Part shown: piece after piece, positions 13,081-24,427 of the stretch
How the letters are laid out: each line of letters opens with the position of its first letter
Numbering within the stretch: the stretch's first letter is position 1
Assembly (NCBI GenBank): GCA_022826025.1
Contig: JAJDVR010000114.1
Span: 1 to 36,177, forward strand
DNA: 36,177 nt
Origin: Gemmatimonadota bacterium
GTDB taxonomy: Bacteria; Gemmatimonadota; Gemmatimonadetes; Longimicrobiales; Gaopeijiaceae
Direction: 5' to 3'
Made by a program: the position numbers and the translations under genes
The notes under the pieces: generated by a model
What the model was told of the DNA's origin: nothing
What the model saw: only the letters and a program-made list of their open reading frames with translations
The model's database searches: none

Positions 13081-14562
13081 TCACGCCCCGAACAGCGGGA
13101 TGTCGAACACCCGCGCGAAGATGAGCACCACGCTCATCGCGGTGAAGACGATCAGGCTGAACCAGCCGAACCAGCGGGCGAAGGGGGAGGGGTAGAAGGC
13201 GCGGTCCTCCTTCGGGATCACGACCAGGCAGTAGTAGAAGTTGAGGAAGAAGATCACCGGGGCGATGAAGAAGGCGAGCGCCGAGGCCACCAGCACCAGG
13301 AAGACCGGCCGGGGCAGCCCCGCGATCACGGCCACCGAGCCGATCAGCGAGTAGATCATGGTGGCGCGGTAGAGGTTGTACTCCGAGTACCAGCCCTTCC
13401 GCTTCTTGTCGATGCCCGCCGTGCGCGCGGTACCGCGGAAGAGGTTGCGGCAGCACGCGCCCACGATGCGCGGCCAGCCGTCAAAGTAGTTGAAGGCGGT
13501 CGAGAAGGTGGCCGCGAAGGCGCCGAACATGAACAGCCCCATCATGCCGGGACCCACCGAGTTGGTGAAGATTCCCGCGATCTCACCCATCACCGCCTGG
13601 CCCTCCACCGCGCTGGGATAGAGCCACACAGCCGCAAGCAGCATGAACACGGCGGCCATCACGAACGACACCACGTGCCCGAGGCGGAAGTCCCAGAGGC
13701 CGATCTGGAACCAGCGCCGGCAGTACTCCTGCGCGTGCGCGGGGAGGCGGTTGCTGTGTACGGTGAGGTCGCGGAGGCGCGGCGAGAAGGGGTTGAACGA
13801 GCGCGCGATCCCCAGCTCCTCCATGCGGTCGCGGATCCTGCTCATTCCCGCCTTCTTCGCCTTGCCCCACTCCGAGGCCTGGAGCGAGACGTCCATGCCG
13901 GTGGGCAGGAGGCCCAGGAACGCGGCGATGACCAGCCAGGAGCCGTCGGGGATTTCGACCAGGAAGAAGGTGCCCATCTCCGAGAAGGGCGCGGGCTGGT
14001 AGAAGTAGACCGCCAGCGTGGACACCACCATGATGGCCGCGAGGATCTTGGCCGAGTTTTCCACGGCCTTGTAGCGCCCCATGAGCAGAATGCCCACCGA
14101 CACCACCCCCAGCCCTACCGCCGCGCCGGTGAGGGTGACGGGCCAGCCCAGCACCTCCGAGCCCACGTAGTAGACGACCGCGGCCGCGGCGATCAGGCGT
14201 CCCGCCTGCCCGATCGCGCACTGGATGAGCGTCGTCACCAGGACGTACCAGAGCGGCCACTTCCACCGCGCCGTCGCGTAGGCCTCGATCAGGCTCTTGC
14301 CGGTCGCGTTGGTGAAGCGGAAGGCCATCTCGAAGCCGTAGTACTTGAAGATGTAGGCCACCGGAAGACACCAGAGCAGCGCGTACGCGAACCTGCCCCC
14401 GGCCGTGGGCGCGGTGACCAGGTGGCTGGTGCCGATCCCGGTCATCATCAGGATGATCCCCGGTCCGAAGTGCCGGACCAGTCCGCGCGCCGAGCGGTCC
14501 GGAAGCTCGAGCCGGTCGAATTCGGAGGCTTCCGCCGGGGTGCGGCCGGGGTTCTGGGCCAT
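13081..14562 (-). CDS. Nramp-related transporter lacking the canonical metal-binding motifs
   Basis: 493 residues with about 11-12 helices and the Nramp opening GPGIILMMTGIGTSHLV. Canonical Nramps have DPGN in helix 1; here the aligned position reads GTSH. The helix 6 MPH motif is also absent, replaced by LLPTGMDVSLQASEW. A loop of about 60 residues after helix 6 is long and charged. A helix carrying MFGAFAATFSTAFNYFDGWPR follows. It is therefore a divergent Nramp-fold protein, and manganese or iron transport cannot be assumed. The ATG at 14562 has a GGAGAAA ribosome site. It is first in a minus-strand operon with the small membrane protein and the sodium symporter. It is divergent from the aminotransferase at 14745. 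Confidence 0.8.
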   Translation of the reverse strand: MAQNPGRTPAEASEFDRLELPDRSARGLVRHFGPGIILMMTGIGTSHLVTAPTAGGRFAYALLWCLPVAYIFKYYGFEMAFRFTNATGKSLIEAYATARWKWPLWYVLVTTLIQCAIGQAGRLIAAAAVVYYVGSEVLGWPVTLTGAAVGLGVVSVGILLMGRYKAVENSAKILAAIMVVSTLAVYFYQPAPFSEMGTFFLVEIPDGSWLVIAAFLGLLPTGMDVSLQASEWGKAKKAGMSRIRDRMEELGIARSFNPFSPRLRDLTVHSNRLPAHAQEYCRRWFQIGLWDFRLGHVVSFVMAAVFMLLAAVWLYPSAVEGQAVMGEIAGIFTNSVGPGMMGLFMFGAFAATFSTAFNYFDGWPRIVGACCRNLFRGTARTAGIDKKRKGWYSEYNLYRATMIYSLIGSVAVIAGLPRPVFLVLVASALAFFIAPVIFFLNFYYCLVVIPKEDRAFYPSPFARWFGWFSLIVFTAMSVVLIFARVFDIPLFGA

Positions 14563-14680: not shown

Positions 14681-14744
14681 CGGCACCGGGCGAGGGCGAT
14701 TTCAGGTGCCCCGCTCTCCGGACTTCAACCGTTTGCCAGGTGCC

Positions 14745-15947
14745 ATGAGCGAACGTCCCCTGCTGATGATCCCCGGACCCATCGAGGTCTCCCCGGAGGT
14801 ACTGCGCGCCTTTTCGAGGCCGCCTCCCGGCCACGGCCAACCCTTCGTGGTGAAGGCGTTCGGTGACTCCCTGAGCCGGATGCGCGAAGTGTGGCGAGCC
14901 GGCGAGGGCGCGCAGCCGTTCATGGTCGCGGGCAGCGGGACGCTGGCGATGGACATGGCGGCGGTGAACCTGCTCGACCCGGGCGACGAAGCCCTGCTCG
15001 TGGACACCGGCTACTTCGCCGACCGCATGCGGCTGGTGCTGGAACATCGCGGGGTCAAGGTCCATGCGGTCGTCAGCCCGCCGGGCGAGCGGCCGGAGCC
15101 GGGCGAGGTGGAAGCCGCCCTGGACGCCTGCGCGGCGAAGGTCCTGTTCGCCACCCACGTGGATACCTCGACGGGCGTGCTCGTCGATCCGGCCGGCCTG
15201 GCGGCGGTCGCGCGCTCGCGCGGCGTGCTGTCCGTCTTTGACGGCGTCTGCGCCACCGGAGCCGAGGCCTTCGAGATGTCCGATTGGGGCGCCGACGTCT
15301 ACTTCACCGCCTCGCAGAAGGCGATGGGGCTCCCGCCCGGGCTGGCGCTGTTTGTTTCCGGCGCGCGCGCGATGGAGGCGAGCCGGACGCGCCGCACACC
15401 CTGCCCCCTGTACCTCGACTGGAACGTCTGGCTGCCCATCATGGAGACCCATGAGGCGGGGAGCATGAGCTACTTCGCCACCCCCGCGACCAACCTTCTC
15501 GTCGCGGCCGAGGTCGCGCTGGGCGAGATCCTTTCCGATCGGCTGGACGGGCTCGAGGGCGTGGATGCGCGCATCGAGCGCCATGCGCGCGCCGGCCGGG
15601 CGATGCGGGCGGCGTGGGCGCACATGGGGCTCGGCGTGGTCCCCGCCAGCGACGCGCACTGCGCGAATACCCTGAGCGCGGTCCGGTACCCGGCGGGCGT
15701 GGACGCCTCCCTGGTGGGCCGCATCGTCGAGCGGGGCGTGATCGTCGCCGCGGGACTGCATCCCGCCATGGCCGACCAGTACTTCCGCGTGGGGCACATG
15801 GGCTACGTGACCACCCGGCCGGACCTGCTGCGGCGCACCATCCGCGCCGTGGGCGACGCCCTGGGGGCTGGCGGGTGCGCGGTCGACACCGTCGGCGCGG
15901 TCGATGCCGCAATGAAGGAACTCGGATCCCGGGCGGTCGCCGTGTAG
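14745..15947 (+). CDS. Class V pyridoxal-phosphate aminotransferase (serine/alanine-glyoxylate type)
   Basis: 400 residues. The start LLMIPGPIEVSPEVL and the glycine-rich VAGSGTLAMDMAAVNLL are typical of the AGXT/SPT-like group. PLP is held by Asp166 (VFDGVCATGAE) and Lys192 (TASQKAMGLPPG). YFATPATNLL and the C-terminal FRVGHMG also fit. It should transfer an amino group from serine, alanine or a related amino acid to glyoxylate or pyruvate. A link to the following sulfur genes (for example a sulfonated or thiol amino acid as donor) is only suggested by position. The ATG at 14745 is preferred over a GTG at 14706, which would add a non-conserved tail. It is the first gene of a seven-gene same-strand run. 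Confidence 0.87.
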   Translation: MSERPLLMIPGPIEVSPEVLRAFSRPPPGHGQPFVVKAFGDSLSRMREVWRAGEGAQPFMVAGSGTLAMDMAAVNLLDPGDEALLVDTGYFADRMRLVLEHRGVKVHAVVSPPGERPEPGEVEAALDACAAKVLFATHVDTSTGVLVDPAGLAAVARSRGVLSVFDGVCATGAEAFEMSDWGADVYFTASQKAMGLPPGLALFVSGARAMEASRTRRTPCPLYLDWNVWLPIMETHEAGSMSYFATPATNLLVAAEVALGEILSDRLDGLEGVDARIERHARAGRAMRAAWAHMGLGVVPASDAHCANTLSAVRYPAGVDASLVGRIVERGVIVAAGLHPAMADQYFRVGHMGYVTTRPDLLRRTIRAVGDALGAGGCAVDTVGAVDAAMKELGSRAVAV

Positions 15948-16057: not shown

Positions 16058-16516
16058 GTGGTCTACACCTCCCGAGTCCGCATCGAGCGCAAGGCGGGCC
16101 CGTTGCGCCATGCGCATCTGCCAGCTACTCCCGACCCTGTCCTGTTCGGGGTGCACAGCGAGATCGCCAGCCACTACGGCGTCGAGCCCGAGACACCGGT
16201 GGCCACGACCCTCGACTACATCGTGGCGGCGGCCGGCGGCTGACTGACGGGAACCCTTGGCGGCGCGCTGGAGGCGCGCGGGATTCCGGCGGGGCAGGAT
16301 CGCCTGACCTCCGAGGTCGAGGGAGGCATCGACAAGGAGGACGGCGTGCTCGTGATTCGCACCGTCCACGTGCGCTACCACCTCCGCATGGAGGCGGGCA
16401 AGGAGGACCGCGCGCGGCGGGCGCACGAGATCCATCACCCGTACTGCCCGGTCTACCGGACCCTGGTCGGGTGCGTCGAGTTCTCCACCGAACTCGAAAT
16501 CGAGATCGTGTCGTGA
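16058..16516 (+). CDS. OsmC-family peroxiredoxin-like protein, probable selenoprotein (in-frame TGA at 16241-16243)
   Basis: 152 residues if TGA codon 62 is read as selenocysteine. The frame starts at GTG 16058, with AAGGAG 7 bases upstream, and stays OsmC-like on both sides of the TGA. Before it comes LFGVHSEIASHYGV and TTLDYIVAAAGG; after it comes LTGTLGGALEARGI, EGGIDKEDGVLVIRTVHV and HHPYCPVYRTLVGCVEF. OsmC relatives have Cys exactly at the TGA position (AAAGGC-LTGT), the peroxide-reacting thiol. The second conserved Cys is present (Cys130 in YCPVYR). A two-step hairpin with a UGGAG apical loop begins 6 bases after the TGA (see 16250-16287). OsmC-like selenoproteins are an established bacterial family. 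The gene overlaps the sulfite-oxidase-like gene by GTGA, so readthrough would couple the two. A TGC-to-TGA pseudogene is the main alternative. No selA, selB, selC or selD lies in the window. Confidence 0.85.
16250..16287 (+). promoter_or_regulatory. Bacterial SECIS-like hairpin
   Basis: The upper stem GCGCGC (16263-16268) pairs with GCGCGC (16274-16279) around the loop UGGAG. The lower stem GGAACCC (16250-16256) pairs with GGG-A-UUCC (16280-16287), with one bulged A. A six-base bulge, UUGGCG, lies on the 5' side. The apical loop begins 25 bases after the UGA and contains G residues, as expected for SelB-recognised elements. The pairing was found by eye and no energy was computed. Confidence 0.7.
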
Positions 16517-17697
16517 GCGGGGGGAAGACGGCGTTTCCGGGCGGCTCGCTCTCCCGCCGGCAGTTCGCGGCACTCCTCGCTGCGGGCGGGGCATCCGCCC
16601 TCCTCCCGGGCTGCCGCTCCGATACCGGCACGGTCGGTCCGGAACTCGATACGGCGTGGTTCAAGGATCCCGATCCCTTCATCCGCCATGCCACCAACCT
16701 GGAGAGCCGGCTCGAGCTCCTGGACGGGCTGATCACCCCCAACGACCTCTTCTTCGTGCGCAACCACGCCCCGACCCCGGCAATCACGGCGGACGACTAC
16801 CGGCTGCGCGTCACCGGCGACGGCATCGAACGGAGCATCGAGCTCGGCCTCGACGAGCTGCGCGCACTGCCGAGCCAGTCGGTGATCGCGTACCTGGAGT
16901 GCGCCGGAAACTGGCGCGGCTTCTACGCCCGCGTGCTGGGACAGGCAGCCGAGGGCACGCAGTGGGGCACGGGGGCGGTCGGATGCGCCGCATGGTCGGG
17001 ACCGTCGCTGGCGTCGGTGCTCGGGGCGGCCGGGCTGCGGCCGGAGGCGGTCGCGGTGAACCTCGTGGGCCTCGACGACGGCGGCTTCAGCCGGCCCATG
17101 CCGGTGGACAAGGCGATGGACCCGGACACCCTGCTCGCCCTGTCGATGAACGGCGAACCGCTGCCTCCCGACCACGGATTTCCCGTGCGCGGGGTGGTTC
17201 CCGGCTGGGCGGGGAGCAACAGCATCAAGTGGGTCGGGGAGATCCAGGTCTCGACCGAGCCGATCTGGGTCAGCGCGAACACCACCTCCTACGTCCTGAT
17301 CGGCCCGGACTGGCCGGCCGAGCAGTACGCGCCCGCCGACGGCGCTCCCGTGACGGCGCTCCCGGTGAAGAGTGCGCTGGCCCTTCCCTGGCCGGGGACG
17401 GTGCCGGCGGGAAGAACCCGGCTCCGCGGCTTTGCCTACTCGAACGATGGCCCCGTCGAGTCGGTGGAATGGAGCGCGGACGATGGCGCCAGCTGGGCGC
17501 CTGCACGCCTGATCGGCCCTCGCCTGCGCTACGCCTGGACGCGCTTCGAGTTCGAGTGGCAGGCCTCGCCCGGCTCCTACACGCTGCGCACCCGCGCCAC
17601 CGATGCGGCGGGCAACACCCAGCCCATGGAAAGCGCGTGGAACCAGAAGGGCTACCTGCTCAACCTGGCGCTTCCGCACCCGGTGCAGGTGAGCTGA
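16513..17697 (+). CDS. Sulfite-oxidase-like molybdopterin oxidoreductase, Tat-exported lipoprotein
   Basis: 394 residues from the GTG that overlaps the OsmC stop (GTGA). The N-terminus has a twin-arginine motif (SRRQFAALLA, Arg15-Arg16) and a lipobox LLPGC (Cys34), so the folded cofactor-loaded protein should be exported and anchored. The molybdopterin domain shows FFVRNHAPTP, the molybdenum-ligating Cys130 in YLECAGNWRGFY, and VPGWAGSNSIKWVGEIQV. A C-terminal Mo-co dimerisation domain follows, with RGFAYSNDGPVESVEWS and ATDAAGNTQP. It resembles SorA/SoxC-type sulfite dehydrogenases, which oxidise sulfite to sulfate and pass electrons to a c-type cytochrome. The next gene is such a cytochrome. 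Other sulfur or N/S-oxide substrates are possible. Confidence 0.87.
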   Translation: MSGGKTAFPGGSLSRRQFAALLAAGGASALLPGCRSDTGTVGPELDTAWFKDPDPFIRHATNLESRLELLDGLITPNDLFFVRNHAPTPAITADDYRLRVTGDGIERSIELGLDELRALPSQSVIAYLECAGNWRGFYARVLGQAAEGTQWGTGAVGCAAWSGPSLASVLGAAGLRPEAVAVNLVGLDDGGFSRPMPVDKAMDPDTLLALSMNGEPLPPDHGFPVRGVVPGWAGSNSIKWVGEIQVSTEPIWVSANTTSYVLIGPDWPAEQYAPADGAPVTALPVKSALALPWPGTVPAGRTRLRGFAYSNDGPVESVEWSADDGASWAPARLIGPRLRYAWTRFEFEWQASPGSYTLRTRATDAAGNTQPMESAWNQKGYLLNLALPHPVQVS

Positions 17698-17774: not shown

Positions 17775-18158
17775 ATGGCAGTGACGGGCCGTAGGCGAAC
17801 GGTCGTGGCACGCGCCCTGGCCGGGGCGGCCGTCTCCGCTACCGCGCTGCTGGTTGGCTGCAGCGATGGCCCCGAGATCGACGGCGCCCTCGTCTACGCC
17901 CAGCGCTGCGCCTTCTGCCACGATGTGGAGGGCCAGGTCGGGGCCGAGATCACCGCGGCGACCCTGGCGTCGCGCGGCGATGAGGAAACGCTGACCCGGT
18001 ACCTGCGCCTGGCAATGCCCTACGAGGCCCCCGGCACCATGACCGATGCGGAATACCGGGCGACGGCGCGCTATCTGTTGGAGACGCGAGGGCTGGCCGG
18101 CGAAGCGGGCGCGGGCAGCGTGGCCGGCCGTGGCAACGGAACGGGAGAGGGCCGATGA
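17775..18158 (+). CDS. Small c-type cytochrome lipoprotein, likely electron acceptor of the molybdoenzyme
   Basis: 127 residues. A basic N-terminus and hydrophobic helix end in the lipobox LLVGC (Cys29), giving a periplasmic membrane-anchored protein. The haem motif is CAFCH (Cys45, Cys48, His49). The distal methionine is probably Met81 (LAMPYEAPGTM) or Met89. A helix ATARYLLETRG closes the monohaem fold, and a Gly-rich tail follows. It lies 77 bases after the sulfite-oxidase-like gene, matching the SorA-SorB pairing of sulfite dehydrogenase with its cytochrome. I infer electron transfer from sulfite to the respiratory chain. Confidence 0.85.
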   Translation: MAVTGRRRTVVARALAGAAVSATALLVGCSDGPEIDGALVYAQRCAFCHDVEGQVGAEITAATLASRGDEETLTRYLRLAMPYEAPGTMTDAEYRATARYLLETRGLAGEAGAGSVAGRGNGTGEGR

Positions 18159-18382
18159 ACCGAATCGTGCGGCGCACCCTGATCGGGTTCGTGGTCGGCG
18201 CGCTCGCCTTCGGGCTCGCGAGCGTCTACCAGGCAATCAGCTCGGGGGTGGGGCTTGTCCCCACTCTCGGTCCGCTGGGGTTCATGATGGTGCTGGGAGG
18301 CACCATCGGCGGGCTCGCCGGCCCACTGGTGGGGGAGGCGCTGGCCCGCTCGCGGCAGCGGCGCGCGCAGAGAAGGAGATGA
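18155..18382 (+). CDS. Small two-helix membrane protein
   Basis: 75 residues. A basic start (MNRIVRRT) is followed by a hydrophobic helix at about 9-27, a glycine-rich second helix at about 36-58 (LGFMMVLGGTIGGLAGPLVG) and an arginine-rich end (RSRQRRAQRRR), so both ends should lie in the cytoplasm. It overlaps the cytochrome stop by ATGA, indicating coupled translation. No family is recognised. It may anchor or assist the cytochrome/molybdoenzyme module, but this rests only on position. Confidence 0.7.
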   Translation: MNRIVRRTLIGFVVGALAFGLASVYQAISSGVGLVPTLGPLGFMMVLGGTIGGLAGPLVGEALARSRQRRAQRRR

Positions 18383-18386
18383 GCCT

Positions 18387-19094
18387 GTGCAAGCGATGAG
18401 CCTTGCCTCCTTCGACGTCCTCACCTTCGACTGCTACGGCACGCTCATCGACTGGGAGAGCGGGATCCTGCGCGCCGTCCGGCGCGTGCTGGCCGCCCAC
18501 GGTCACGAACTCTCTCCCGCAGAGATCCTGGAGCATTTCGCCCGCTTCGAGTCGACCATCCAGGCCGGTCCCTACCGCACCTACCGGGATGTCCTCTCGC
18601 GGGTGGTGGACGAGTTCGGACGCGAGCTGGGGTTTGCGCCCGGCCCGGAGGAGCGAGCCTCGCTTCCGGAGTCGATCGCCCGCTGGGCTCCCTTCGACGA
18701 CACCGTGGCCGCGCTGCGCATCCTCGCATCGCGCTATCGGCTGGCGGTGATCTCCAACGTGGATGACGACCTGTTCGCCTTCTCGGCGCGCCGGCTGGGG
18801 GTCGAGTTCCACGAAGTCGTAACGGCCCAGCAGGTCGGCAGCTACAAGCCCGATGCGCGCAACTTCGAGTTGGCGCTCGAGCGCCTCGGTGTGCCCGTCG
18901 ACGCCATTCTGCACGTCGCCCAGAGCCTCTTCCACGACATCGCCCCGGCGAAGCGCCTCGGGTTTGCCACGGTGCATGTGAACCGGGTCTCCCCCCATGG
19001 CGGATCGGGGGCTACGATGCCCGTGAGCGCCCGGCCCGATCTGGAAGTGCCGGATCTGGAGACGCTGGCGGAGATGGTGCTGGCAGAGGAGTAG
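18387..19094 (+). CDS. HAD-superfamily hydrolase (haloacid dehalogenase type II-like)
   Basis: 235 residues. The nucleophile is Asp15 in TFDCYGTLIDWE; the C-Y spacing of DCYGT is typical of the dehalogenase/phosphonatase-like HADs rather than phosphatases with DxD. Motif II is AVISNVDDD, motif III is the lysine in GSYKPDARNFE, and motif IV is LFHDIAPAKRLG. A helical cap lies at about 20-110. It hydrolyses a carbon-halogen or phosphate bond through an aspartyl intermediate, in the cytoplasm. The GTG at 18387 is preferred because AAGGAG lies 8 bases upstream; the ATG at 18396 would be 17 bases away. The substrate is unknown. Confidence 0.85.
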   Translation: MQAMSLASFDVLTFDCYGTLIDWESGILRAVRRVLAAHGHELSPAEILEHFARFESTIQAGPYRTYRDVLSRVVDEFGRELGFAPGPEERASLPESIARWAPFDDTVAALRILASRYRLAVISNVDDDLFAFSARRLGVEFHEVVTAQQVGSYKPDARNFELALERLGVPVDAILHVAQSLFHDIAPAKRLGFATVHVNRVSPHGGSGATMPVSARPDLEVPDLETLAEMVLAEE

Positions 19095-22410: not shown

Positions 22411-23859
22411 CTATCCGCCCACGCGCTCGAAGATCAGGTCGCGCACCCGCCCGCCGGTGACGGTGAACGCCACCACCCGGCCGGATTCGTCCCGCCGGAA
22501 GCGCAGCTCCGGGAAGAGGCGCGGGTTGCTTGAGAAGGTATCCTCGCCTGCCGGCGCCAGCGCCGACGGGCCGGTGCGCCAGTGGCGCGCGACCAGGCTG
22601 CCGCGATCGACCACGACTTCGTAGGTCATGTCGAGTTCGGGGCTCCGGTAGCGTCCGGCGTACTCGCGCAGTTGGGACTCCGTGGGCATGGGCGGAGGCG
22701 CATCGGTGATCTCGGCGGCGCCAACCGGCTCGGGTTCCGGGCCCATCGCCTCTCCGGCGAAGACTTCCGCGACCCGTAGCGCGCGCCTCGCGGGATCGCA
22801 GTCCGACACGTTGCAGAACACGGCGATCGACAGATTCTGCTCCGGGAAGCGCACGAAGTTGGTGCGGTATCCGGCCCAGGACCCGCCGTGACCGAAGTTG
22901 GGCAGCCCCCGATACTCGCCAACGGTGAGCCCGTGCGCGTACGCCAGCGTCTCGCCGTCGTTCAGCACGCCCCGCTCGCGCATCCTCCTCACCACCTCCT
23001 CGCCCCCGACCTCGCCGGTCTCGTAGTTGCGCATCCACAGGATGAAGTCGTCGATGGTGGTGTTGAGCGAACTCGAGGCCAGCGCGGTCAGCTGGTTGGG
23101 CTGGCGCACGAAGCCGGCGTCCCCGTCCGGCGAGTAGGACTCGGCACGTCCCGGCACCACCTCCAGATGATCGTCCGAGAAATGCGTGCGGCCCATCCCC
23201 AGGGGCTCGAAGATCCGCTGGCGGGTGAACTCGCGGAAGCTCATCCCCGACTGCGCCTCGATCACCCTGGCGAGCAGGTTGTAGCCCGTGTTGGAGTAGG
23301 CGTACTCGGCGCCGGGATCGAAGTTGACGGCCTGCTGTTCGAAGAGCATGCGCAGGATCCTGTCGAAGGAGATGACGTCGCTCCGCTCCAGCCCCGCCAG
23401 CGACATGACATGCACCCAGTCGCGAATCCCGCTGGTGTGGTGAATGAGATGCCGCGGTGTGATCCGGACCCCGAAGTCGGGGAGTTCGGGGACGTATGCG
23501 CGCACGTCCTCGTCGAGGTCAAGCCTGCCGTCGCTCTCCAGCAGGAGTGCCGCCATGGCCCCGAACTGCTTGGAGATGGAGGCAATGTCGAACACCGTCC
23601 CGGGCGTGATGGCGGCGCCATGGTCGAGATGGGCGATGCCGTAGCCCGCGCGATGGACGATTTCGCCCTCGAGCAGAACCCCGACCGCCGCGCCCGGCCC
23701 GTCCCGGTCCAGATCCGCGAACACGGCATCGACCCCGGGATGGGAAGGTCCGTCGTTGACGGTTACCGGCGATGCCTGGGAGGCTGGGCCGCAGCCCGCG
23801 ATAGCCACGGCGGAAGACACGGCCAGGGCAACGAACAATACGCGGGGAAAGCGGTACAT
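22411..23859 (-). CDS. Serine hydrolase of the beta-lactamase class C / penicillin-binding-protein-like family, lipoprotein
   Basis: 482 residues. The lipobox AIAGC (Cys23) ends the signal peptide. The active site is complete: Ser94-x-x-Lys97 in DIASISKQFG, Tyr188-Ser-Asn190 in YAYSNTGYN, and the HGG triad element in FGHGGSWAGYRT. A beta-rich C-terminal domain (about 380-482, DUF3471-like, with YAGRYRSPELDMTYEV) follows. It probably acts on peptides, esters or cell-wall fragments in the periplasm; resistance to beta-lactams cannot be assumed. The ATG at 23859 is chosen because it restores a clean signal peptide; a longer open frame upstream is Pro/Arg-rich filler. Confidence 0.87.
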   Translation of the reverse strand: MYRFPRVLFVALAVSSAVAIAGCGPASQASPVTVNDGPSHPGVDAVFADLDRDGPGAAVGVLLEGEIVHRAGYGIAHLDHGAAITPGTVFDIASISKQFGAMAALLLESDGRLDLDEDVRAYVPELPDFGVRITPRHLIHHTSGIRDWVHVMSLAGLERSDVISFDRILRMLFEQQAVNFDPGAEYAYSNTGYNLLARVIEAQSGMSFREFTRQRIFEPLGMGRTHFSDDHLEVVPGRAESYSPDGDAGFVRQPNQLTALASSSLNTTIDDFILWMRNYETGEVGGEEVVRRMRERGVLNDGETLAYAHGLTVGEYRGLPNFGHGGSWAGYRTNFVRFPEQNLSIAVFCNVSDCDPARRALRVAEVFAGEAMGPEPEPVGAAEITDAPPPMPTESQLREYAGRYRSPELDMTYEVVVDRGSLVARHWRTGPSALAPAGEDTFSSNPRLFPELRFRRDESGRVVAFTVTGGRVRDLIFERVGG

Positions 23860-24079
23860 CCTGGGACTCCAGTCTTCGAGGAGCAGCGCGCGGGGACCCG
23901 GACAGAGGGCGCACGCTATCCGGGGACAGTCGACGAAGCAAGCCGATGGACCGGACGACCGGGAAGGAGGGGTGGTCCGGGACCGAGGTACAGTGGTGAA
24001 GTTTGGATCGGCGGCCGCGCCCCGAAGCGTATCTGCGGCCCCTGCGGGCCGCGGCCGCCGTCGTCCTAAGGGATCGAGA

Positions 24080-24427
24080 TCAGCCGGAGTCTCCTCTGGC
24101 CGCGAGAACACCCAGCACGGCACCGACAATACCCGTCACAACCGCCGCAACCACGAGTGCCATCACTGCGTCGCCGCTCATGATGCCATTGCTCATCAAG
24201 CTCATCACAGCGCCGAGCACAGCTCCTCCCTTGAAGCCATCCTGGGCGTTGCCCACGCCCCTCCAGCCAAGGACAAGTGTGTAGAATGCTCCGGCGAAGA
24301 GGAGGCCAAGGATTCCGTTGAGGTCAAGGGTGGCCGCTTCTCCGACACCTACCGCGCCCTCGACATAGCCGAGAACCAGCAGCGCGACGGCAACCGCGAC
24401 GGTTCCAATTGCAAAATTCTTGTCCAC
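24080..24427 (-). CDS. Small three-helix membrane protein of unknown function
   Basis: 115 residues. The GTG at 24427 follows GGAAGGAGG by 5 bases, much better than the ATG 14 codons earlier. Helices lie at about 5-23 (IGTVAVAVALLVLGYVEG), 33-53 (LNGILGLLFAGAFYTLVLG) and 85-108 (VMALVVAAVVTGIVGAVLG). The short loop GWRGVGNAQDGFKGGA between them is glycine-rich and lipid-facing in style. No family is recognised. It is upstream of, and in the same direction as, the serine hydrolase, 220 bases apart. Confidence 0.65.
   Translation of the reverse strand: MDKNFAIGTVAVAVALLVLGYVEGAVGVGEAATLDLNGILGLLFAGAFYTLVLGWRGVGNAQDGFKGGAVLGAVMSLMSNGIMSGDAVMALVVAAVVTGIVGAVLGVLAARGDSG

What the first reader, a model, noticed from the sequence alone, without database searches (positions are those of the whole stretch)
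16058..16516. Probable selenocysteine-containing OsmC protein in a sulfite dehydrogenase operon
An in-frame TGA sits exactly where OsmC relatives have their peroxide-reactive Cys. OsmC sequence continues for 90 codons after it with no frameshift, and a hairpin with a G-containing apical loop starts 6 bases later. The gene then overlaps the molybdoenzyme start (GTGA). OsmC-like selenoproteins are known, but coupling to a Tat-exported sulfite-oxidase/cytochrome module suggests a specific role, such as handling peroxides or sulfur intermediates made during sulfite or organosulfur oxidation. Conventional gene calling would split or drop this gene.
Basis: partly seen in the sequence, partly recalled or inferred. 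Interest (0 to 1): 0.92.

Follow-up and report, generated by a model that had tools for sequence, protein, structure and literature searches.

The report
Selenocysteine-containing OsmC redox protein
This gene very probably makes a small bacterial redox protein with the rare amino acid selenocysteine in its active site, and it belongs to a branch of the OsmC family in which nearly every gene examined has the selenocysteine codon; its place beside a sulfite-oxidase-like enzyme is a local feature of one genus.

Summary
The reading frame, the in-frame TGA (16241-16243, codon 62) and the OsmC similarity are real. The selenocysteine reading is strongly supported. The window's own genome has tRNA-Sec, SelA, SelB and SelD. 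In four phylum samples (1,141 genomes), 197 of 204 matches hold exactly one TGA; one holds Cys, two are fragments ending before codon 62, four are weak matches without a stop. After the TGA lies a 6-bp hairpin with a UGGAG loop: in 31 chosen TGA genes 185 of 186 pair cells are intact, against a synonymous-resampling mean of 101 and maximum of 129. The Cys gene lacks it. Genes of one other phylum have a different hairpin. Sec62 aligns, weakly, with the reactive Cys of a solved OsmC; the second Cys (130) is kept. OsmC-like selenoproteins have been predicted since 2005; but this clade fails NCBI's OsmC selenoprotein model (16.8 bits, cut-off 95) and forms its own branch. Peroxide or thiol chemistry is inferred, not shown.

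The parts
16058..16516 (+). OsmC-family selenoprotein gene, 152 aa when TGA at codon 62 is read as Sec
   Evidence: PF02566 2e-13; best AlphaFold2 model mean pLDDT 92.5 matches OsmC/Ohr structures
16241..16243 (+). in-frame TGA, Sec codon (residue 62)
   Evidence: TGA in 17 of 18 genome-contig loci
16263..16279 (+). conserved hairpin, probable bacterial SECIS core: stem 16263-16268 with 16274-16279, loop 16269-16273 (UGGAG)
16445..16447 (+). Cys130 (TGC), second redox residue of the OsmC pair
   Evidence: invariant in 14 of 14 rows of A1; aligned with the CPV Cys of 1ukk (E 0.033)
16513..17697 (+). sulfite-oxidase-type molybdoenzyme; by eye a twin-arginine-like signal and lipobox; start overlaps the OsmC stop
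   Evidence: PF00174 1e-50, PF03404 7.4e-11; below cut-off for SoxC, SorA, SorT
17775..18158 (+). small cytochrome c; by eye a lipobox and CxxCH
   Evidence: PF13442 3.7e-9
18155..18382 (+). 75-aa reading frame, probable membrane protein, ATG overlaps the cytochrome stop
   Evidence: read from sequence by eye; not translated or scanned in this frame by any search
18387..19094 (+). haloacid-dehalogenase-type II hydrolase
   Evidence: TIGR01428 142.7 bits, cut-off 125.4
14706..15947 (+). class V aminotransferase upstream, conserved in the genus; exact start not settled
   Evidence: PF00266 2.3e-15; conserved in L013-L020

Best explanation
The gene encodes a probably cytoplasmic OsmC-family redox selenoprotein. 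SelB with Sec-tRNA(Sec) reads UGA at codon 62 as selenocysteine because of the hairpin at 16263-16279 (machinery and hairpin shown; decoding inferred). Sec62 stands where OsmC/Ohr proteins have their attacking Cys and Cys130 where they have the resolving Cys (shown by alignment). Most likely Sec62 reacts with a peroxide or another oxidised or sulfur substrate, then forms a selenenylsulfide with Cys130 that a cellular dithiol reduces (inferred from the family, recalled). Lying first in a sulfite-oxidase-type gene cluster is a genus-level arrangement and need not define its function. The confidence given is for Sec insertion into this OsmC protein; for peroxide-type activity I would say about 0.6.
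For: Own genome: tRNA-Sec 72.3 bits, over the gathering score (ARAGORN), SelB 308 bits, SelA 8.5e-157, SelD 1.6e-91, each over its cut-off. 8 of 8 sampled genomes of the genus, own included, have SelA. TGA at codon 62 in 17 of 18 genome-contig loci and in 23 of 24 loci fetched from three further phyla, the other being the same Cys gene again. Matches holding one TGA: 144 of 146 in the own phylum, the 2 others fragments ending before codon 62; 23 of 28, 26 of 26 and 4 of 4 in three further phyla. 89 of 91 clade-bearing genomes have SelA at 1e-60 against 132 of 207 without the clade (Fisher 5e-12). Hairpin: 185 of 186 cells paired, covariation score above 500 of 500 shuffles and all six slid controls; synonymous resampling mean 101.3, maximum 129 in 2000. 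The Cys gene pairs 2 of 6. Sec62 and Cys130 align with the Cys pair of 1ukk. Best PDB matches of the model are OsmC and Ohr proteins.
Against: No protein-level or 75Se evidence. Four of the 17 genomes tested behind contig loci (G305, G306, G310, G314; L014 was not given) and 2 of 91 in the phylum sample (G147, G212) show no SelA at the strict thresholds used, perhaps from incomplete assemblies. Rfam finds nothing in the window at gathering scores. The single-sequence fold is not unusually stable. In the pair count two controls are weak: 7 of 500 shuffles also reach two pairs with two-sided change, and the number of further pair types (4) is not above shuffles (mean 4.6; 500 of 500 reach it). 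Taken singly, one of the 31 TGA genes (L023) pairs no better than resampling (P 0.18) and the other 30 reach P 0.007 to 0.04. All 11 TGA loci fetched from the phylum of L025 pair only 1 to 3 of 6 in this register, though each has another stem of 7 or 8 bp nearby; stems of that search have no shuffle control. The sequence match to 1ukk is weak (E 0.033), with Asp53 at its Glu, so the chemistry may differ from classical Ohr/OsmC. For matches whose DNA was not fetched only the presence of one TGA is known, not its codon.
Confidence: 0.93

Rival explanations
1. One reading: a selenoprotein dedicated to the adjacent sulfite-oxidase/cytochrome module, handling peroxides or sulfur intermediates made there.
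For: Adjacent in 7 of 7 same-genus genomes that hold both and in 8 of 8 loci L013-L020 (partly the same genomes). 38 of the 39 genomes with a molybdoenzyme match at E below 1e-100 also hold the OsmC clade, against 53 of the other 259; by genus 6 of 7 against 29 of 112, Fisher 0.0026.
Against: Not adjacent in 31 of 38 genomes holding both. The 5 further genomes with weaker molybdoenzyme matches (44 in all) hold no clade member. Clade members elsewhere sit beside other genes. OsmC has no export signal by eye, its neighbour has one. Co-occurrence not corrected for ancestry or habitat.
Confidence: 0.12
2. The TGA ends translation: a pseudogene, sequencing error, or two separate short genes.
For: The stop itself; 2 of 91 genomes with the clade lack a detected SelA and 4 of 17.
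Against: Same codon is TGA in independent assemblies and several phyla (one TGA); protein conservation continues after it; hairpin kept under synonymous freedom.
Confidence: 0.02
3. TGA is read as another amino acid (altered code or near-cognate read-through) rather than Sec.
For: Decoding was not measured.
Against: TGA ends this gene and 4 of the 10 neighbouring genes inspected; tRNA-Sec with SelA, SelB and SelD is present; the only alternative residue seen in the clade is Cys.
Confidence: 0.02

Closest known systems
OsmC-like selenoprotein of the Sargasso Sea set (PMC1088965; also listed in PMC2398784, PMC9312934, PMC13188914; passages seen)
   Same: OsmC-family protein with predicted Sec and a downstream hairpin with G in the apical loop.
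   Different: Motif given as UxxT, here U-L-T-G-T, i.e. T one residue further. The table rows seen read 3/10/0/17 (2005) and 5/3/161 (2008); column heads were not in the passages, and I take 10, 17 and 161 to be Cys homologues, whereas here one Cys member was found. The published sequences were not compared, so identity of the two families is not excluded.
NCBIfam NF041052 OsmC-related (seleno)protein
   Same: OsmC-related, described as (seleno)protein.
   Different: Window protein scores 16.8 bits, cut-off 95; 0 of 150 genomes in the phylum reach the cut-off, 37 match below it.
OsmC / Ohr proteins with solved structure (1ukk, 2onf, 1nye, 6ebg and others)
   Same: Fold, attacking residue position and CPV motif with second Cys (1ukk).
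   Different: 9 to 19% identity in the 50 rows shown; Sec for Cys; Asp53 where 1ukk has Glu.
SoxC / SorA / SorT sulfite dehydrogenases (neighbouring gene)
   Same: Molybdopterin and dimerisation domains.
   Different: 224.9, 212.6 and 200.4 bits against cut-offs 420, 600 and 570.

Membership tests
OsmC superfamily (PF02566) | profile score over gathering threshold | tested here: met
   51.1 bits against 27.5
OsmC superfamily (PF02566) | fold and two redox residues at family positions | tested here: met
   Foldseek best matches OsmC/Ohr; Sec62 and Cys130 aligned with the 1ukk pair, E 0.033; distance between them in the model not measured
OsmC superfamily (PF02566) | hydroperoxide reduction with dithiol reductant (recalled) | not testable with these tools
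   needs enzyme assay
Bacterial selenoprotein | Sec machinery in the genome | tested here: met
   tRNA-Sec, SelA, SelB, SelD
Bacterial selenoprotein | in-frame UGA at a Cys position of homologues | tested here: met
Bacterial selenoprotein | downstream hairpin with G in a small apical loop | tested here: met
   criterion from a passage of PMC1088965
Bacterial selenoprotein | selenium in the protein | not testable with these tools
   needs mass spectrometry or 75Se
NF041052 OsmC-related (seleno)protein | score over the curated cut-off | tested here: not met
   16.8 bits against 95
Published OsmC-like selenoprotein (UxxT) | UxxT motif | tested here: not met
   residues 62-66 are U-L-T-G-T; motif from passages
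Published OsmC-like selenoprotein (UxxT) | grouping with the published sequences | not tested
   no published sequence was at hand
SoxC/SorA/SorT (neighbour) | score over curated cut-off | tested here: not met

The most novel reading that the evidence does not exclude
This is a separate OsmC clade that is a selenoenzyme almost by definition: Sec was fixed early, spread over at least four phyla, was replaced by Cys only once in what was sampled, and the gene is absent rather than converted to Cys where the Sec machinery is missing (2 of 77 sampled genomes without SelA hold it, both as TGA). Its Sec would have arisen apart from the other OsmC selenoprotein clade seen here (GAUTSMT), its hairpin was replaced by another in one phylum, and its chemistry may be one that sulfur cannot easily do.
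Probability: 0.5. Interest if true: 0.6.

Novelty: new variant of a known kind. Interest (0 to 1): 0.45.

Why it matters
An ordinary gene caller would be expected to end this gene at codon 61 (not tested here), and NCBI's OsmC selenoprotein model does not catch it, so a widespread selenium-dependent redox protein may be misannotated in genomes of at least four phyla (records titled Gemmatimonadota, Actinomycetes/Acidimicrobiia, Syntrophobacteraceae, Peribacillus, among others). A clade with nearly no Cys form is a good place to ask why selenium is needed. One holder with a strain name was found (Peribacillus kribbensis DSM 17871, L028, with SelA), so it can be tested.

Tried and rejected
Chance or error: rejected by conservation and resampling. 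Altered code: rejected, TGA ends neighbouring genes. A role fixed by gene neighbourhood: of the neighbours listed for 26 loci I scanned 20 proteins at 13 loci, one of them (L078) a second copy within the genus; 18 of 20 had a Pfam match at 1e-8 (RsgA GTPase, NUDIX, HMGL-like lyase, pterin-binding enzyme, sigma factor, aldolase and others), none a sulfite enzyme. An RsgA-NUDIX-OsmC order recurs in part (RsgA at L021 and L049, NUDIX at L021 and L056), which is another local arrangement. Rfam at gathering scores gave nothing. Single-sequence folding was uninformative.

Rows left out of the hairpin count: the Cys gene L025, the partial gene L087, near-copies (L013, L014, L016-L019, L039, L044, L051, L054, L057, L058, L062), exact copies, L046 (missed by the first regex; 6 of 6 later), and the loci of three phyla searched afterwards. 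Those were placed with 24 of 24 located: phylum of L024 (L100-L107) 7 of 8 at 6 of 6 pairs and L104 at 5; phylum of L028 (L108-L111) 4 of 4 at 6 of 6; phylum of L025 11 TGA loci at 1 to 3 of 6, and L088, the same Cys gene as L025, at 2 of 6. The earlier attempt gave wrong frames for L091, L092, L093, L095, L101 and L106 and missed seven loci; it is superseded. The 75-aa membrane gene was translated in a wrong frame, and the ORF 18046-18399 scanned is another frame.

Full report
What is there. The frame 16058-16516 starts with GTG behind an AGGAG-type site (by eye), has TGA at codon 62 (16241-16243), continues for 90 sense codons and stops at TGA 16514-16516. Read through, it is a 152-residue OsmC-family protein: PF02566 at 2e-13, 51.1 bits over a cut-off of 27.5, with the match spanning the TGA.

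The machinery. The genome of the window (3.9 Mb in 287 contigs, completeness 92.29, contamination 5.77) has a tRNA-Sec at 72.3 bits, the only one of ten listed matches over the gathering score, also called by ARAGORN with anticodon tca; SelB at 308 bits, SelA at 522 bits and SelD at 307 bits, each over its cut-off. They lie on other contigs than the window, so contamination is possible in principle, but SelA is found in 8 of 8 sampled genomes of the genus, own included.

Conservation of the TGA. A scan of genome contigs gave 18 loci; 17 have TGA at this codon and one, L025 from a Syntrophobacteraceae assembly, has TGT. In 298 genomes of the phylum, 91 hold the clade with 146 matches; 144 hold one TGA and the other two are fragments ending before codon 62. 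In the phylum of L025, 26 of 247 genomes match: 23 of 28 matches hold one TGA, one is the Cys gene (in a genome that also has a TGA copy), and four weak matches without a stop (1e-14 to 1e-15) look like other OsmC proteins, not examined. In the phylum of L024 25 of 297 genomes match, 26 of 26 matches with one TGA; in the phylum of L028 3 of 299, 4 of 4. Of 24 loci fetched from these three phyla 23 have TGA at the codon aligned with 62; the other is the same Cys gene. Some matches are fragments, so matches are not genes. Several contig loci are the same assemblies as genomes of the phylum sample (for example L020 and G078 C55, both 66,819 bases), so the counts must not be added.

Link to the machinery. 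89 of the 91 genomes with the clade have SelA at 1e-60, against 132 of 207 without it (Fisher 5e-12). This does not correct for ancestry. The two exceptions, G147 and G212, are fragmented (440 and 830 contigs). Among 17 genomes behind contig loci 13 have SelA at 1e-40 and 4 do not; their completeness is not told.

The hairpin. Relative to the T of the TGA, positions 23-28 pair with 34-39 around a UGGAG loop; RNAalifold finds the same helix with one more pair. In 31 chosen TGA genes, 185 of 186 cells pair; one pair changes from C-G to U-A in one gene and another from G-C to A-U in five; the covariation score 0.189 is reached by 0 of 500 shuffles (mean 0.131) and by none of six slid controls; but two pairs with two-sided change are reached by 7 of 500 shuffles, and the number of pair types is not above shuffles. 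The A-U genes that are in the tree (L029, L078, L081, L082) fall in one branch, so they count as few events. Drawing synonymous codons at each gene's own third-position G+C gave 101.3 pairs on average (sd 6.8) and at most 129 of 186 in 2000 draws; relatedness is not modelled there. L086 keeps the G+C-rich stem although its gene has 34% G+C at third positions. The Cys gene keeps 2 of 6 pairs. In later loci, 12 of 12 from the phyla of L024 and L028 keep 5 or 6 of 6 pairs, while 11 of 11 TGA loci from the phylum of L025 keep only 1 to 3 and instead have a stem of 7 or 8 bp nearer the TGA. The 2005 survey describes bacterial elements as having a small apical loop with a guanosine (passage of PMC1088965), which fits.

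Protein. Sec62 aligns with the Cys of the AGC motif and Cys130 with the CPV Cys of T. thermophilus OsmC 1ukk (E 0.033). Both are among 21 columns invariant in 14 rows (U shown as C; the Cys row included). The best of five AlphaFold2 models from 14 sequences reaches mean pLDDT 92.5, the others 73.1 to 87.2; its best PDB matches are OsmC and Ohr proteins, TM-scores by query length 0.67, 0.78 and 0.69 for the top three. That two Cys with Arg and Glu form the Ohr active site is recalled, not from a call; here the Glu place of 1ukk holds Asp, and no Arg before residue 74 is invariant, so classical Ohr chemistry is not assured.

Place in the family. In a tree of 48 proteins the clade is one group (34 rows, support 96/92), with the Cys member nested inside beside a TGA gene (L089, support 85/85), which suggests loss of Sec once. 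Six other OsmC-like genes of the phylum also have an in-frame TGA in a GA-U-(T/M)SMT context; they group with two Cys proteins, apart from this clade. The root is a midpoint and the program warns that long branches meet, so independent origin is an inference.

Known before? OsmC-like selenoproteins are in print as predictions: passages of PMC1088965, PMC2398784, PMC9312934 and PMC13188914 list them with motif UxxT. Searches 'OsmC + selenoprotein' (7 papers), 'OsmC + selenocysteine' (10), 'OsmC + selenocysteine + Ohr' (3), 'selenoprotein + OsmC family + Gemmatimonadota', two of three (6), and 'selenoprotein + Gemmatimonadetes' (11) listed none whose title or abstract start reports an experiment on an OsmC selenoprotein; papers not named above were not opened. 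None holds both 'OsmC' and 'sulfite dehydrogenase'. The library holds open-licence papers only.

The operon. Downstream come a sulfite-oxidase-type molybdoenzyme (16513-17697), a small cytochrome c, a 75-aa frame and an HAD hydrolase; upstream a class V aminotransferase. The set is kept in 8 of 8 loci L013-L020. In the phylum sample the OsmC and molybdoenzyme genes lie within 5 kb in 7 of 38 genomes holding both, all of this genus (three genomes, G163, G201 and G293, have a second molybdoenzyme copy that the script left out and that lies on yet other contigs). In G058, G017, G161 and G072 they share a contig but lie over 100 kb apart. In other genera the molybdoenzyme is 60-70% identical in the strong matches. 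Co-occurrence is strong (38 of 39 genomes; 6 of 7 genera; the five weaker matches lack the clade), so a looser functional or ecological link remains open.

Verdict. A real selenoprotein gene, well spotted; of a kind already predicted, but in a clade that the curated selenoprotein model misses and that had one Cys member in all that was sampled. The sulfite-specific role is a genus-level guess.

Noticed in passing
L072-L077 (G146, G114, G077, G076, G111, G014): A second OsmC-like clade with an in-frame TGA in a GA-TGA-(T/M)SMT context, followed by a TCGCGC-TGTAT-GCGCGA type inverted repeat (by eye); relatives L065 and L070 have Cys.
   Followed up: partly
L078, L079, L081, L082, L083: Many genomes carry a second copy of the clade; these five second-type copies (U-L-L-G-T or U-M-L-G-T) also have TGA, and four of the five show the G-C to A-U change in the hairpin.
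   Followed up: partly
L025/L088 and G309 C278: One genome holds both a Cys copy and a TGA copy of the clade.
   Followed up: no
L089-L099: TGA genes of one other phylum have a different stem, mostly CTGGCC..GGCC type, nearer the TGA, so the element was rebuilt or replaced.
   Followed up: partly
L021, L049, L056: RsgA GTPase and NUDIX genes lie just upstream of the clade member in another lineage (RsgA at L021 and L049, NUDIX at L021 and L056).
   Followed up: no
window 16810-16884 (-): ARAGORN calls a 75-base tRNA-Leu inside the molybdoenzyme coding sequence; probably a false call.
   Followed up: no
L031 (G000 C36): The SelD match lies in an open frame of 809 aa, and a long translation from the locus looks by eye like an FAD-dependent oxidoreductase, so a fusion is likely; frames were not compared.
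   Followed up: no
window 13081-14562 (-) and 22411-24129 (-): Nramp-like transporter and a beta-lactamase-fold hydrolase.
   Followed up: no
L013, L014, L016, L020: Record titles say Gammaproteobacteria or BD2-11 clade, although contigs of the same length (L013, L014, L020) fall in the genus of the window and other close loci are titled Gemmatimonadetes.
   Followed up: no
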